This document shows positions 244-4,667 of a stretch of DNA of 5,217 nt, piece after piece. The notes under the pieces are model-generated. The model did no database searches, was not told the origin of the DNA, and saw only the letters and a program-made list of their open reading frames with translations. A program made the translations under genes and the position numbers. Within the stretch, counting starts at the first letter, position 1. Each line of letters starts with the position of its first letter. Location: positions 1-5,217 of the forward strand of contig JAAYZL010000337.1 in the NCBI GenBank assembly GCA_012514855.1, written 5' to 3'. The DNA comes from Clostridiales bacterium. GTDB taxonomy: Bacteria > Bacillota_A > Clostridia > Christensenellales > Aristaeellaceae.

Positions 244-1133
244 TTTTCCGGAATATAGGGGGCGATCGCGCGCTTCAATGCCTCTAGCTCCCCGGAGGCG
301 AGATCGAGGAGCGGCTTGCGCATGTGCCCGCCGCGAACGCCGCGCAGGGTCTGGACGTTTTTGAAAACGCTCATATCGGAGCCGCCCTTGAGCACGCGCG
401 TCATGTCGAAGCACCTGAGCTGAAGTTCGCGGGCCTTGTCGTACTCCCCGGCGCGGAAGGCGCGGTAGATTTCGACGAACGGCTCGGGCATGCAGCTCGA
501 GCAGCCGGAGACGGTGCCCTCGCAGCCCATGGCCAGGGCGGGGAAGAACAAATCGTCCGGGCCGAAGACCACGGAGAAACAGCCTTCGCGCACCTTGAGG
601 TATTCGGTTAAGCGCCGCATGTCGGCAAAGGAATATTTGACGCCCACGATGTTGGGGCAGGCGTCGGCGATTTTCTGCATGGTGGCGCCGTCGACGTCGT
701 TCATGGCGAGCTGCGGAATGACATACGCATATACCGGGAAATCCGCGGGGAGCTGCCCGCAGACGCGGCGGTAGTATTCGACCATCGCCCGGGGCGAAAC
801 GCCGAAGTAGCTCGGGGTGACGACGCCCACGCCGTCCGCGCCGATCCCGTGCGCGTGCCGGGCGAGGCGAACGACCTCGTCCTCGCGCATGGCGCCGCAG
901 TGGATGAACACCGTCACGCGCCCGGCCGCGCGGCGGACGACCGTCTCCGCGACCAGCATCCTCTCGGCCTCGTCCATCAGGTACATCTCGCCCGTGGTCC
1001 CGCAGGGGTAGAGGCAATCGACGCCCTATTCGATCAGAAAATCCGTCTGCTGCTCGAGCGCCCCGACATCCACCTGGCCGTCGGCGGTAAAGGGAGTGGT
1101 CATCGCGGTGATCACGCCAAACAAGGTTTTCAA
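240..1133 (-). pseudogene. DHDPS/NAL-family class I aldolase, interrupted by in-frame TAG
   Basis: This is a member of the dihydrodipicolinate synthase / N-acetylneuraminate lyase family. These are cytoplasmic TIM-barrel enzymes that form a Schiff base between a lysine and a 2-oxo acid, then cleave or condense it. Translated through one TAG (codon 36), the frame gives about 297 residues, the normal family length. Seen in it: an N-terminal FGVITAMTTPF strand, the GTTGE 2-oxo-acid loop at about 45-49, a Tyr in YVIP at about 137 (usually YNxP) and the Schiff-base Lys in GVKYS at about 166. I chose the TTG start at 1131-1133 because GGAGG lies 8 nt before it. An in-frame ATG at 1146-1148 has only a weak site. 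The next ATG after the stop (984-986) would lose the first strand and GTTGE, so that 248-residue product should be inactive. The gene is divergent from the LacI-type regulator. Exact substrate is unknown; true DapA is unlikely given the catabolic context. Causes of the stop could be a nonsense mutation, a base error or readthrough. Confidence 0.82.
1026..1028 (-). other. In-frame amber codon in the aldolase gene
   Basis: The plus-strand CTA reads TAG on the minus strand, between ...QQTDFLIE and GVDCLYPCGTTGE. Both sides continue the same family alignment in the same frame, so there is no frameshift. The residue falls at the end of the first helix, just before the conserved Gly, where the family often has Lys or another variable residue. 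A single change from AAG, GAG or CAG would create it. TAG also ends the isomerase gene at 3146-3148, so TAG appears to be a normal stop in this genome. Confidence 0.9.
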
Positions 1134-1163: not shown

Positions 1164-1179
1164 GTGAAATCGATCTTAT
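1164..1179. promoter_or_regulatory. Operator O1, LacI-type palindrome at the aldolase promoter
   Basis: GTGAAATCGATCTTAT has a perfect left half and a degenerate right half around a central CG (1171-1172). It matches the inverted copy at 3409-3424 at 14 of 16 positions and the idealised palindrome GTGAAATCGATTTCAC at 13 of 16. It overlaps the -10 edge and the predicted start site (about 1172) of the minus-strand promoter, which suits a repressor that blocks RNA polymerase. The likely binder, by inference, is the adjacent LacI-family protein. Confidence 0.7.
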
Positions 1180-1207
1180 ATATAACACGGTTTTGGGCCC
1201 CTGTCAA
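1179..1207 (-). promoter_or_regulatory. Sigma70-type promoter for the aldolase gene
   Basis: On the minus strand a perfect TTGACA (plus positions 1202-1207) is followed by a 17-nt spacer and TATATA (1179-1184). Transcription would start near 1172 and give a leader of about 40 nt before the TTG start. The -10 lies within a run of alternating T and A, so its exact register could shift by two bases. Confidence 0.7.
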
Positions 1208-1240
1208 GCCCCTGACGGCGGGAATTTTATCGAGAATCTA

Positions 1241-1269
1241 TTGACAGAATCAACAAAATACAAGATAAT
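1241..1269 (+). promoter_or_regulatory. Sigma70-type promoter for the regulator-isomerase operon
   Basis: TTGACA (1241-1246), a 17-nt spacer and GATAAT (1264-1269, five of six consensus bases) form a strong promoter. The predicted start is near 1276, giving a leader of about 67 nt. The -35 box is flanked by a direct repeat GAATC (1234-1238 and 1247-1251). No good copy of the O1/O2 operator overlaps this promoter, so direct self-repression through that motif is not evident. Confidence 0.75.
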
Positions 1270-1284
1270 GACAGAGTTAAGGGC

Positions 1285-1313
1285 GGAAATTCGGCGATAA
1301 CGAGCCGCATTCC
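1285..1313 (+). repeat. Imperfect inverted repeat in the regulator leader
   Basis: GGAAATTCGGC (1285-1295) and GCCGCATTCC (1304-1313) are imperfect inverted partners around GATAACGA. In RNA this would be a modest hairpin about 30 nt before the start codon. It could also be a protein site. The match is weak and nothing else supports a role. Confidence 0.25.
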
Positions 1314-1342
1314 ATCTGCAATCGGGAAACGGGGGGAGCAAT

Positions 1343-2353
1343 ATGAATATCAAGGACATCGCGCGCCTCGCCGGGACCTCGCCGGCAACAGTTTCAAGGA
1401 TTCTCAACAACGATGCGCGCGTCTCCCCACAAACGCGGGAAAACGTTCTCAAGGTCATCGAGCAGACGCAGTACAAGCCGAATTCCCTCGGGCGAAATCT
1501 GCGCAGCCGAAGCAGCAAGAAGCTCCTGATGCTCCTGCCGACCATCCAGAACCCCTTTTACTCCGACATTTTTTTCAGCTTCGAGGAGCACGCCCGGCAG
1601 AACGGCTATTCGGTGCTGATCGCGGTGACCAACCGCGACCCGGAGATCGAGAGGCTCTATTTCGACGTGCTGTTTACCCGCCAGGTCGATGGCGTGGCCT
1701 GCTTTCTGCCGACGATCTCCTTTGAGGAAATTCAGCGGATTTCCGCGGAATATCCCTTTGTGGCCTGCTGCTGGCGCGGCTTTTCCGAGTTGGACGTCAA
1801 TTACGTCTGCATCGACAACGAGCGGGCGGTGTACGAGACGATGCAGTATCTCATCGGCCTCGGGCACCGGCGCATCGGCATCTTGAACGGCAACTACACC
1901 GGGCGCATGTACGAGGTGGAGCGGGAAAAGGGCTATCGCCGCGCGCTGGAATCGGCGGAGATTCCCTACGCGCCGGAACTGAGCGTGCTCTGCGAATACA
2001 GCCACCGGGCGGGATACGAGGGCGCGAAAAAGCTGATGGCGCTGAAGAAGCCGCCGACCGCGATCATGGGCCTCTCCGACGACCGCGCGGCGGGGGCGAT
2101 CAAGTATCTGGTCGAGAACGGCCTTCGGCCGGGCGTGGACGTGGACGTGGTGGGATTTGACGACCTGATGGTCTCGGAGGTCGTTACGCCTACCCTGACC
2201 ACCATCGCCCAGCCGCGCCACGCGATTGGGCGGGATGCGGCCGAACTGCTGCTCTCCCGGATCGAGGACGCGGAAGCGCCCAACAAGGGGATCATACTTT
2301 CCCATAAGCTGATTCTCCGGGAGTCCACGCGCAGGCCCGGCGAGCAATGCTGA
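1343..2353 (+). CDS. LacI-family transcriptional repressor
   Basis: A 336-residue cytoplasmic DNA-binding repressor of normal LacI/GalR length. Residues 2-22 (NIKDIARLAGTSPATVSRIL) are the typical helix-turn-helix, and YKPNSLGRNLRSR (44-56) is the hinge helix, with Leu53 where PurR-type proteins insert a leucine into the central CpG of the operator. Residues 60-336 form the periplasmic-binding-protein-like effector and dimer domain, with landmarks such as NPFYSDIF, VDGVACF, HRRIGILNG, MGLSDDRAAGA and VVGFDDL. The recognition helix S-x-A-T-V-S-R resembles GalR and CcpA, whose operators have TG half sites around a central CG, in agreement with O1 and O2. The start follows a GGGGGAG site 4 nt upstream. 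The gene is first in an operon with the isomerase, 15 nt apart. The effector is not readable from sequence but is probably the imported compound or a derivative of it. Confidence 0.95.
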   Translation: MNIKDIARLAGTSPATVSRILNNDARVSPQTRENVLKVIEQTQYKPNSLGRNLRSRSSKKLLMLLPTIQNPFYSDIFFSFEEHARQNGYSVLIAVTNRDPEIERLYFDVLFTRQVDGVACFLPTISFEEIQRISAEYPFVACCWRGFSELDVNYVCIDNERAVYETMQYLIGLGHRRIGILNGNYTGRMYEVEREKGYRRALESAEIPYAPELSVLCEYSHRAGYEGAKKLMALKKPPTAIMGLSDDRAAGAIKYLVENGLRPGVDVDVVGFDDLMVSEVVTPTLTTIAQPRHAIGRDAAELLLSRIEDAEAPNKGIILSHKLILRESTRRPGEQC

Positions 2354-2354
2354 C

Positions 2355-2360
2355 AGGAGG
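2355..2360 (+). promoter_or_regulatory. Ribosome binding site fixing the GTG start of the isomerase
   Basis: AGGAGG, starting one base after the repressor stop codon, lies 8 nt before GTG at 2369-2371. The first in-frame ATG is much further inside and would remove the first barrel strand (LGCFGFS), so the GTG start is strongly preferred. Confidence 0.85.
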
Positions 2361-2368
2361 AATCGCCC

Positions 2369-3148
2369 GTGCGACTGGGATGTTTTGGGTTTTCCGGAGA
2401 CTTGGCGGCCATCCGCCGCGCCGGATTTGATTTCGCGGAGCTGGACTTGATGGAGCTTTCCCGGATGACGGACGGCGAATTTCGGGAATTTGTCCGCCGC
2501 GCGGGCGATTCCGGATTGGATTTCGACGCCTTTTCCGGCTTTATGCCGCTGACGGAGCGCATTCACAGCCCGGCGTTTTCCGCCGAATGCTGGCTGGAGC
2601 ACGCGCGGCGAATGGCCGACCGCACCGCCAAATTGGGTGCAAAGCTCTGGCCGCTGGGCGCGGGGAAATGCCGGAGCATTCCCGAAAGGGCCGACCCCGC
2701 CGCGGCCCGGGAGCGCGTCAAGACCTTCTTCGGAGGCATCGCCAAGATCGTCGCGCCCTGCGGCGTCAAGCTGTGCATAGAGCCGCTGGGGCCCAACAAC
2801 TCCAATTTTCTCAACACCGTCGGGGAGGCGGCGGAATTCGCGGCGGAAATGGGCCTCGCCAATTGCGCCACGATGTGCGATATGCGCCACATGGTCGCGC
2901 TCGACGAGCCCTTCGAGGACATCGCGACCTGGCGGGAGAGCGTTTGGCACGCGCACATCGACTATCCGCTGGGCTTCGAAAGGCGCTTTCCGAACCCGGA
3001 GGACGGCTGGGATTACCGGCCCTATCTCCTGGCGCTTCACAGGGCGGGCTACGCGGGGCCGCTGACCGTGGAGGCCACCTCCTACGGGAATCTCGAGCGG
3101 GAGGGCGCGGCGTGCGCAAAAATGCTGCGCCGATTGTGGGAGGAGTAG
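2369..3148 (+). CDS. Sugar phosphate isomerase/epimerase, TIM-barrel family
   Basis: A 259-residue protein of the xylose isomerase-like TIM-barrel (AP endonuclease 2) family, which holds metal-dependent epimerases and isomerases such as D-tagatose 3-epimerase and hydroxypyruvate isomerase. Visible landmarks are a first strand RLGCFGFS, Glu24 in FAELDLM, Glu138 in CIEPL, Asp171 and His174 in CDMRHM, His196 in HAHID and Glu235 in TVEATS. Glu138, Asp171, His196 and Glu235 are the likely divalent-metal ligands by family pattern. No signal peptide is seen, so it is cytoplasmic. It is translated from GTG and is second in the operon with the repressor, so it may be made at a basal level. It probably interconverts a keto sugar or sugar-acid intermediate upstream of the aldolase. 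The specific substrate cannot be assigned, and a dehydratase of the same fold is possible. It ends with TAG. Confidence 0.88.
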   Translation: MRLGCFGFSGDLAAIRRAGFDFAELDLMELSRMTDGEFREFVRRAGDSGLDFDAFSGFMPLTERIHSPAFSAECWLEHARRMADRTAKLGAKLWPLGAGKCRSIPERADPAAARERVKTFFGGIAKIVAPCGVKLCIEPLGPNNSNFLNTVGEAAEFAAEMGLANCATMCDMRHMVALDEPFEDIATWRESVWHAHIDYPLGFERRFPNPEDGWDYRPYLLALHRAGYAGPLTVEATSYGNLEREGAACAKMLRRLWEE

Positions 3149-3164
3149 TATTTGCCAATCTCCG

Positions 3165-3195
3165 TGGCCGTCGCGATGCTCGCGTCGGCCATTTT
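3165..3195 (+). terminator. Rho-independent terminator after the isomerase
   Basis: An 11-position GC-rich stem pairs GGCCGTCGCGA (3166-3176) with TCGCGTCGGCC (3180-3190), with a single T-T mismatch and loop TGC. T3165 and A3191 add a pair. TTTTA follows at 3192-3196. The stem is strong and the T run short. It sits 17 nt past the isomerase stop, so it separates the repressor-isomerase unit from the transporter unit. Confidence 0.65.
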
Positions 3196-3375
3196 ATGGA
3201 TTATATGGAATCGTTTTCCTGGCAAAGGAGAAGGGGGCGGTTGTCGCAGATTTGCCTAATAACTTTGGTATATTTTGTAGAGAACGGCAGATATACTGGT
3301 CGCGCGCCCCATGACTTACGAAGATGGATGCGCATAATGCATCAATATATAATAAAAAATATGGCGGAATGTCTA

Positions 3376-3404
3376 TTTACAAAAGAAAGAGCAGATGCTA
3401 CAAT
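3376..3404 (+). promoter_or_regulatory. Promoter of the ABC transporter operon
   Basis: TTTACA (3376-3381, five of six), a 17-nt spacer and TACAAT (3399-3404, five of six) form a strong sigma70-type promoter. The bases TGC directly before the -10 also make an extended -10 element. Predicted start is near 3411, inside operator O2, with a leader of about 96 nt. Confidence 0.75.
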
Positions 3405-3408
3405 AACT

Positions 3409-3424
3409 GTAATATCGATTTCAC
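3409..3424. promoter_or_regulatory. Operator O2, LacI-type palindrome at the transporter start site
   Basis: GTAATATCGATTTCAC has a perfect right half around a central CG (3416-3417). Read on the other strand it is GTGAAATCGATATTAC and equals O1 at 14 of 16 bases. It begins 4 nt after the -10 and covers the predicted transcription start, a classic repression position. It probably binds the LacI-family protein encoded upstream, which would make the transporter inducible by the same signal as the aldolase. Confidence 0.72.
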
Positions 3425-3506: not shown

Positions 3507-4667
3507 ATGAAGAGGTTATTCGCAATGCTTCTCGTGGTGGCCATGCTGGCCGGGCTGGGAATGGCCGCCCAAGCCGAATCCGACAAGATTATCATCGGCG
3601 CCATAACCGACCTGACCGGCAACGGCTCGGTTCTGGGAACCGGCTGCGCCAACGGCTGGACCTTCGCGGTGGAAAAGATCAACGCCGAGGGCGGCATTCT
3701 CGGCAAGCAGGTCGAATTGGTGATCTACGACTGCCAGTCCGATCCGCAGGAAGCCCTGAGCTGCTATGAGCGCCTGGTGAAGGTGGACGGCGCGTCCATC
3801 GTTCTGGGCCCTCCCTTCTCCAACATCGGCCTGGCGCTGGCGGACACGGTGGACGAATTGGGCGTGCCCTTCTTCGGCCTCTTCGGCGATCCGCGCTGCA
3901 TGCTGGGCGAGAATCTCGATACCCTGCATCCCTACATGTTCCTGGGTCAGCCCTCCGGCTATGACGCGGGCCTGATCTCCGGCAGCTATCCGCACGAGGT
4001 GCTGGGGCTCAACAAGGCCGCCATCCTCGTCACCCAGGACCACAGCTACAACATGACCATGACCAAAGCCTTCCAGGATTACGCGGCCAAGGTCGGCATC
4101 GAAATCACCACCGTCCAGTACTGCTCGGTCAAGGACACCGACCTGACTCTGCAGCTCACCGCGATCGCCAGCAGCGGCGCGGAGTACATCTTCGACGCCT
4201 GCAACACCAACGCGCTGGCCGTCGCCACCCAGCAGATGTACCAGATGGGCATCGACCTGGTCCACTGCGGCTCCCTCGACTTCTCCAGCCCCTTCAACGA
4301 GCTGGTCGATCCCCCCGAGGCCATGCGCAACATCTACTTCCCCTATGCCATCGACATGAACGCGGAAAGCCTCACCGACATCACCGCCGAGTTCACCGAG
4401 CGCTTCGGCGTGGCGCCCACGGTCAAGTCCTGGAACAGCTATGACCTGACGACGATCACCAAGGCCGCCATCGAGAAGGCCGGCTCCGCCGAGCCCGCCG
4501 CCATCCGCGACGCCCTGGAGACCATCGAGGGCGTTCCCTGCCTGGCGACCGAGAACTTCCGCATGGATCCCGAGACGCATATGCCTCTGGGCCTTGCGAT
4601 GTGCATCTACAACCTCGAAGGCGGCGAGTACAGCAACATGGGCTCCTTCTTCCCGGCCAAGTGGTAA
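3507..4667 (+). CDS. ABC transporter substrate-binding protein, HAAT (LivJ/LivK-like) family
   Basis: A 386-residue exported binding protein that captures the substrate outside the inner membrane and delivers it to a LivH/LivM-type permease. Residues 1-23 are a signal peptide: KR, a hydrophobic core, then AQA before Glu24, a signal peptidase I site. No lipobox Cys is present. The mature part starts with KIIIGAITDLTG and carries the family signature INAEGGILGKQVELVIYD (58-75), then SIVLGPPFSN (97-106) and NSYDLTTITKAAIEKAGS (310-327), as in Peripla_BP_6 proteins. It has nine cysteines, an unusual number for this family. The start follows AAGGAGGG with 8 nt between GGAGG and ATG. Codons favour GCC, GGC, CTG and TCC more than in the repressor and isomerase, as expected for an abundant protein. 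The family typically binds branched-chain amino acids, but members also bind amides, urea and aromatic acids, so the ligand here is open. Confidence 0.93.
   Translation: MKRLFAMLLVVAMLAGLGMAAQAESDKIIIGAITDLTGNGSVLGTGCANGWTFAVEKINAEGGILGKQVELVIYDCQSDPQEALSCYERLVKVDGASIVLGPPFSNIGLALADTVDELGVPFFGLFGDPRCMLGENLDTLHPYMFLGQPSGYDAGLISGSYPHEVLGLNKAAILVTQDHSYNMTMTKAFQDYAAKVGIEITTVQYCSVKDTDLTLQLTAIASSGAEYIFDACNTNALAVATQQMYQMGIDLVHCGSLDFSSPFNELVDPPEAMRNIYFPYAIDMNAESLTDITAEFTERFGVAPTVKSWNSYDLTTITKAAIEKAGSAEPAAIRDALETIEGVPCLATENFRMDPETHMPLGLAMCIYNLEGGEYSNMGSFFPAKW

What the first reader, a model, noticed from the sequence alone, without database searches (positions are those of the whole stretch)
1164..3424. 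Two matching CG-centred operators link the aldolase and transporter promoters to the local LacI-family repressor
Seen: GTGAAATCGATCTTAT at 1164-1179, and GTGAAATCGATATTAC on the minus strand at 3409-3424, identical at 14 of 16 bases and both close to the palindrome GTGAAATCGATTTCAC. Each sits at the predicted transcription start of an independently recognised promoter. Known: LacI-family proteins with an A-T-V-S-R recognition helix and a hinge Leu bind palindromes with TG half sites and a central CG. Inferred: the 1343-2353 product represses both units, giving a local regulon whose motif and members can be read from one window.
Basis: partly seen in the sequence, partly recalled or inferred. 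Interest (0 to 1): 0.7.

Follow-up and report, generated by a model that had tools for sequence, protein, structure and literature searches.

The report
Local LacI-family repressor and two operators
A bacterial DNA fragment carries a sugar-sensing type of repressor gene and two matching landing sites placed over the start points of a neighbouring enzyme gene and a neighbouring nutrient-transporter gene, which looks like a well-built but ordinary example of local gene control.

Summary
Both 16-mers are at the stated places, CG-centred and alike at 14 of 16 bases. A comparable pair arises in 5 of 2000 shuffles of the intergenic DNA. Each overlaps the -10/+1 region of a promoter before the aldolase or binding-protein gene.

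That the local LacI-family protein owns them is supported by two tests. First, among 99 TVSR-type homologous regulators, Pro at recognition residue 15 goes with A at operator position 5 (5 of 5 with a site of at least 13/14) and Val with T (24 of 27). The window protein has Pro, and its four half-sites have A. Second, of 13 LacI homologues of at least 52% identity on long contigs, 9 share their contig length with a homologue of this binding protein; of 53 remoter LacI homologues none does.

Limits: no orthologous DNA was reached, so conservation of the sites is untested. A CcpA-type regulator is a live rival, because both sites fit the cre consensus with one mismatch. One half of each site is poor. 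The aldolase gene is broken here by an in-frame TAG. Autoregulation is not shown. This is an ordinary local LacI-type regulon.

The parts
1164..1179 (+). operator 1 (poor half towards the promoter, perfect GTGAAATC half away from it), over the -10/+1 of the aldolase promoter
   Evidence: 12 of 14 to TGAAATCGATTTCA, 10 of 14 to TGTAATCGATTACA
3409..3424 (-). operator 2, at the +1 of the binding-protein promoter, same orientation relative to transcription as operator 1
   Evidence: 12 of 14 to TGAAATCGATTTCA, 10 of 14 to TGTAATCGATTACA
1179..1207 (-). likely promoter of the aldolase gene: TTGACA (1207-1202), 17 bp, TATATA (1184-1179)
   Evidence: read directly; not listed by the hexamer scan
3376..3404 (+). 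promoter of the binding-protein gene: TTTACA-17-TACAAT with TG before the second hexamer
1241..1269 (+). promoter of the repressor gene: TTGACA-17-GATAAT; no site of at least 10 of 14 over it
1343..2353 (+). LacI-family repressor, 336 aa; Pro15 Ala16 Arg20 Leu54 Arg55 in PurR numbering (window residues 14, 15, 19, 53, 54)
   Evidence: PF00356 64.6 bits, PF13377 108.3 bits; residues
240..1133 (-). aldolase of the DHDPS/N-acetylneuraminate lyase family, TTG start with GGAGG before it (start assigned by me); frame interrupted by TAG
   Evidence: PF00701
1026..1028 (-). in-frame TAG, codon 36 of the aldolase frame
2369..3148 (+). sugar phosphate isomerase/epimerase-type TIM barrel (AP_endonuc_2), 15 bp after the repressor gene, probably one operon with it
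   Evidence: PF01261
3507..4667 (+). branched-chain-type ABC substrate-binding protein (Peripla_BP_6)
   Evidence: PF13458 175.4 bits
4853..5217 (+). LivH-type permease, cut by the window end
   Evidence: PF02653
3206..3219 (+). weak third site TGGAATCGTTTTCC (11 of 14), possible auxiliary site; chance not excluded

Best explanation
The 1343-2353 gene encodes a local LacI-family repressor. As a dimer it binds two imperfect CG-centred palindromes of type TGAAATCGATTTCA, one over the start of the divergent aldolase gene and one over the start of the downstream binding-protein/permease operon. It blocks RNA polymerase there until an effector, probably the imported compound or an early intermediate, releases it. 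Shown: the sites, their positions, the protein family, the residue-base agreement in the good halves and at position 5, and the linkage of homologues. Inferred: binding, repression, effector.
For: Sites and shuffle control. Placement over promoters, with 30 and 82 bases between operator and start codon; more than 75% of LacI-family sites lie 140 to 30 bp before the start codon (PMC4052901, passages). LacI-family domain set. Residue test (counts of dropped rows): of 103 HTH hits 99 were kept (1 with too little upstream DNA and 3 not TVSR were dropped). 33 of the 99 have an upstream site of at least 13/14 (0.2 expected from shuffles); Pro15 gives A at position 5 in 5 of 5, Val15 gives T in 24, A in 1, C in 1 and G in 1 of 27 (Fisher, A against T, P = 4e-5). 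At 12/14 (43 of 99, 1.2 expected): Pro15 5 A of 5; Val15 25 T, 8 A, 1 C, 1 G of 35 (P = 0.003). The window protein has Pro15, and all four half-sites have A at position 5. An exact TGAAATCGATTTCA lies between a Pro15-Ala16-Arg55 regulator and divergent ABC-transport genes in Cohnella zeiphila (L055). Linkage: LacI and binding-protein homologues share a longest-contig length in 9 of 13 cases of 5 kb or more, control 0 of 53.
Against: No orthologous DNA was reached, so conservation of the sites is untested. Each site has one poor half, with A instead of G at position 6 (where Arg20 is linked to G) and G or T instead of A at position 4 (which residue 16 is linked to). 8 of 35 Val regulators also have A-type sites at the looser threshold, and 5 of 10 Pro regulators had no site of at least 12/14. 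The repressor's own promoter has no proximal site, although 72% of LacI-family regulators autoregulate (PMC4052901). Contig sharing is inferred from equal lengths; 4 of the 13 long LacI contigs, one of 610,790 bases among them, show no listed binding-protein partner, and 3 of the 9 partners are only 42-47% identical to the window's binding protein.
Confidence: 0.8

Rival explanations
1. The two sites are catabolite-responsive elements bound by a CcpA-type global regulator encoded elsewhere; the local LacI protein has other targets.
For: Both sites fit TGWAANCGNTNWCA with one mismatch. CcpA chains are the nearest solved structures to the window protein, and a regulator annotated ccpA carries Ala16 too (L216). 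Catabolic genes are usual cre targets (recalled).
Against: Position 2 is T in all four half-sites and the window protein has Arg55. Arg55 regulators with a site of at least 12/14 have T in 14, A in 17, C in 4 and G in 0 of 35; of three Ala55 regulators the one with a site has G. This is weak evidence, because the cre consensus allows any base at position 2. Nearly 90% of LacI-family regulators are local (PMC4052901, abstract). Repressor and transporter homologues are linked. The window protein itself is far below the CcpA cut-off (191.6 against 442.35 bits).
Confidence: 0.12
2. Both regulators share the sites: the local repressor and CcpA bind the same operators, giving induction plus catabolite control.
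For: The motif satisfies both descriptions.
Against: No direct evidence; a CcpA gene cannot be looked for, because no whole genome is held.
Confidence: 0.05
3. The pair is a chance resemblance.
For: In the whole window such pairs are not rare (162 of 1000 shuffles; a second, coding pair exists).
Against: Intergenic-only chance is 5 of 2000, before counting the placement over two promoters and the residue agreement.
Confidence: 0.03

Closest known systems
Local LacI-family sugar-utilisation regulons (Ravcheev et al. 2014, PMC4052901)
   Same: LacI-type repressor beside transport and catabolic genes, even palindromes with central CG, sites about 30-140 bp before start codons
   Different: No site over the repressor's own promoter; targets are a branched-chain-type ABC system and a DHDPS-family aldolase; conservation untested
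TVSR recognition classes of the LacI family (Camas et al. 2010, PMC2978694)
   Same: Arg20 with G at position 6 in the good half-sites, residues 15 and 16 linked to positions 5 and 4, Leu54 with central CG
   Different: Each site has one poor half that departs at positions 4 and 6
CcpA and cre
   Same: TGAAA half-site and central CG; one mismatch to TGWAANCGNTNWCA
   Different: Pro15 and Arg55 in the local protein, and no CcpA-level score
Cohnella zeiphila Pro15-Ala16 LacI homologue (L055)
   Same: Same recognition residues; exact TGAAATCGATTTCA between the regulator and divergent ABC-transport genes
   Different: Only 36% identical protein; another transporter type (BPD_transp_1, SBP_bac_1)

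Membership tests
LacI-family local regulon | LacI HTH plus periplasmic-binding-like effector domain | tested here: met
   PF00356 and PF13377 above the gathering scores
LacI-family local regulon | Even palindrome with central CG | tested here: met
   16 bp, CG centre, 5 and 6 of 8 pairs palindromic
LacI-family local regulon | Operators at promoters of neighbouring transport or catabolic genes | tested here: met
   the aldolase promoter is likely, not scan-called
LacI-family local regulon | Operator bases agree with the recognition residues of the regulator | tested here: met
   Pro15 with A at position 5 in 4 of 4 half-sites (rule); the two poor halves depart at positions 4 and 6
LacI-family local regulon | Regulator and targets stay together in relatives | tested here: met
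   9 of 13 share a contig length with a binding-protein homologue, control 0 of 53; a length proxy. For the aldolase 4 plausible matches among 30
LacI-family local regulon | Sites conserved upstream of orthologues | tested here: inconclusive
   no orthologous DNA found:
LacI-family local regulon | Binding and derepression by an effector | not testable with these tools
   needs bench work
CcpA/cre regulon | Fit to the cre consensus | tested here: met
   one mismatch at each site
CcpA/cre regulon | The window protein is itself CcpA | tested here: not met
   TIGR01481 191.6 bits, cut-off 442.35
CcpA/cre regulon | A CcpA gene in the genome and sites elsewhere in it | not testable with these tools
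   no whole genome is held for the window

The most novel reading that the evidence does not exclude
Within one orthologous cassette the repressor has switched residue 15 from Val (most remoter homologues) to Pro (the nine closest), and the operators have switched with it from TGTAATCGATTACA to TGAAATCGATTTCA at both promoters, a natural record of repressor and operators changing together.
Probability: 0.45. Interest if true: 0.4.

Novelty: new member of a known kind. Interest (0 to 1): 0.22.

Why it matters
It gives a motif and a candidate regulator for an uncharacterised branched-chain-type transporter cassette whose closest named relatives are in Clostridia. It also adds a case (Pro15 with TGAAAT half-sites) to the recognition code of the LacI family. 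It changes no general picture.

Tried and rejected
In those loci the only matches to the window's aldolase or binding protein were weak ones: aldolase-type in L004 (29%) and L059 (40%, about 1.2 kb behind its LacI gene), binding-protein-type in L053 (24%). A viral-contig scan gave no relative. Twelve genome searches over 1735 genomes, repeats counted, gave nothing closer than 45% for LacI and 51% for the aldolase, and no binding protein at E 1e-50: LacI in 10 and 391 genomes, binding protein in 188 and 394, aldolase in 391, 98, 59, 10, 3, 188, 1 and 2.

TAG reassignment as an explanation of the aldolase stop: rejected as unlikely, because the TIM-barrel gene of the same window ends in TAG. Two cre-like sites in coding DNA (362-375 and 1438-1451) as auxiliary operators: not pursued. 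Known RNA element: none at the gathering scores. Literature search for the motif string: 22 papers hold at least one of three strings; the 20 rows that I saw show no occurrence of the 14- or 18-mer.
Full report
What is there. The window (61% GC) holds, from left to right: a DHDPS-family aldolase on the minus strand (240-1133), a LacI-family regulator (1343-2353), a TIM-barrel isomerase/epimerase 15 bp behind it (2369-3148), a branched-chain-type ABC binding protein (3507-4667) and the start of a LivH-type permease (from 4853). No whole genome is held for it. The nearest named homologues are in Clostridia: the aldolase is 88% identical to that of Candidatus Pullichristensenella excrementigallinarum (P0173), and the binding protein 87% and the LacI protein 75% identical to proteins of a 'Clostridia bacterium' MAG (P0123, P0007).

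The observation. Both 16-mers are at the stated coordinates and alike at 14 of 16 bases. They are the only matches to the palindrome with up to three mismatches, against 0.01 expected. Because the palindrome was read off the sites, I also asked how often any comparable CG-centred pair arises. In shuffled intergenic DNA this was 5 of 2000, but in the whole shuffled window 162 of 1000, and a GC-rich coding pair at 922/2493 passes as well. Intergenic placement therefore carries the significance. Read in the direction of transcription, both operators have the poor half nearer the promoter and a perfect GATTTCAC half beyond it. Operator 2 starts 5 bases after the TACAAT hexamer found by the scan. 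Operator 1 overlaps the end of TATATA, 17 bp from a perfect TTGACA; the scan did not list that promoter because the sixth base of its second hexamer is not T. There are 30 and 82 bases between operator and start codon (TTG at 1133, ATG at 3507).

Which protein binds. In the LacI family, residues 15 and 16 are linked to operator positions 5 and 4, Arg20 to G at position 6, residue 55 to position 2, and Leu54 to the central CG (PMC2978694: abstract, passages and sections 6 and 9 read). Of 1303 LacI-type regulators, 1251 have even palindromes and 1173 have a central CG (PMC4052901: abstract and passages read). The window protein has Pro15, Ala16, Arg20, Leu54 and Arg55. I tested the code on homologues without using the window. 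In 80 LacI loci from genomes and 18 plasmid loci, 103 LacI-type HTH hits were found; 1 with too little upstream DNA and 3 that were not TVSR were dropped, leaving 99. For each I took the best of 16 templates of the form TG-x-AA-y-CG within 400 bases upstream. With at least 13 of 14 matches, 33 had a site against 0.2 expected from shuffles: Pro15 5 A of 5; Val15 24 T, 1 A, 1 C and 1 G of 27; Thr15 1 C. With at least 12 matches, 43 had a site against 1.2 expected: Pro15 5 A of 5; Val15 25 T, 8 A, 1 C and 1 G of 35; Ser15 1 A; Ile15 1 A; Thr15 1 C. Of ten Pro15 regulators five had no site of at least 12; three of those five had an A-type best match of 11. The Val15 group contains close relatives and so is not that many independent cases; the five Pro15 cases come from Cohnella, Paenibacillus, an Anaerolineae MAG, Pseudoduganella and Thermus. 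In the window all four half-sites have A at position 5, as Pro15 predicts. Against this, the poor halves have A instead of G at position 6 and G or T instead of A at position 4. The exact 14-mer lies between a Pro15-Ala16-Arg55 regulator and divergent ABC-transport genes in Cohnella zeiphila (L055).

Does the set stay together? Protein clusters were compared by the length of the longest contig that carries them, a proxy for lying on one contig. Of 30 LacI clusters of at least 52% identity (window excluded), 13 have a contig of 5 kb or more, and 9 of these share its length with one of 47 binding-protein clusters; six of those nine partners are 59-87% identical to the window's binding protein and three 42-47%. 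The other four LacI clusters (P0008, P0014, P0017, P0020, the last on 610,790 bases) show no such partner in a list that was capped by shared words. Of 89 remoter LacI homologues, 53 with contigs of 5 kb or more, none matches. Against all 120 listed aldolase clusters the 30 LacI clusters share five lengths: four plausible (4478, 3368, 2407, 287,967) and one (1767) too short to hold both genes, hence a coincidence; the 89 controls share one (1596), also too short. The 287,967-base length occurs for all three proteins. This supports a local regulator with the transporter among its targets, less firmly the aldolase.

The main rival. Both sites fit the CcpA cre consensus with one mismatch, and the window has four such matches against 0.12 expected, two of them in coding DNA. 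The cre string is known to me from recall and from the search listing; no CcpA paper was opened. Position 2 discriminates little: Arg55 regulators with a site have T in 14, A in 17, C in 4 and G in 0 of 35, and of three Ala55 regulators the one with a site has G, but cre allows any base there. The linkage data and the local position favour the local protein; CcpA cannot be excluded without the genome.

A prediction. Among the 24 homologues aligned, residue 15 is Pro in the nine closest (P0002-P0010) and in P0030, Ser in three and Val in eleven. The nearest Val15 homologues in hand, at 42-44% identity (L001-L004), have TGTAATCGATTACA or close variants upstream of their own genes. Val15 members of the cassette should therefore carry TGTAAT-type operators. 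This is untested.

Limits and corrections. The aldolase frame is interrupted by TAG at codon 36, before the GTTGE motif; the seven homologues aligned have a residue there, so intact copies exist. TAG ends the TIM-barrel gene, so it is probably read as a stop here too. Whether the interruption is real or a sequencing error is open. The repressor and TIM-barrel genes probably share a promoter (1241-1269) with no operator over it; the centre of operator 1 lies 69.5 bp upstream of that -35 element, so autoregulation is possible but not shown. The weak site at 3206-3219 (11 of 14) could be an auxiliary operator or chance.

Verdict. It is a typical local LacI-family regulon with a good, not perfect, fit to the known recognition code.

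Noticed in passing
1026-1028 (minus strand): In-frame TAG at codon 36 of the aldolase gene; the seven aligned homologues of 65-88% identity have a residue there. Mutation or sequencing error.
   Followed up: partly
362-375 and 1438-1451: Two cre-like matches with one mismatch inside the aldolase and lacI coding regions; with the two operators four in all against 0.12 expected.
   Followed up: partly
3206-3219: Weak third CG-centred site TGGAATCGTTTTCC between the TIM-barrel gene and operator 2, 204 bp from it centre to centre.
   Followed up: no
P0011 and PDB 3c3k: LacI-family proteins whose given name is 'alanine racemase', apparently a naming slip in the sources.
   Followed up: no
L013, L016, L021, L025, L031, L035, L046 (exact), L001-L003 (outer base differs): Val15-Ala16 LacI homologues in Firmicutes and Proteobacteria share ATGTAATCGATTACAT-type sites upstream of their own genes.
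   Followed up: partly
P0131, P0288, P0136: Relatives of the binding protein (63-67%), and an aldolase on a contig of the same length as one of them, are recorded from Limnocylindria and Anaerolineae MAGs, which suggests transfer of the cassette or misbinned contigs.
   Followed up: no
L059, LacI at 10001 and aldolase-type gene at 12130: An Anaerolineae locus also has a DHDPS-type gene (40% identity) about 1.2 kb behind a Val15 LacI homologue.
   Followed up: no
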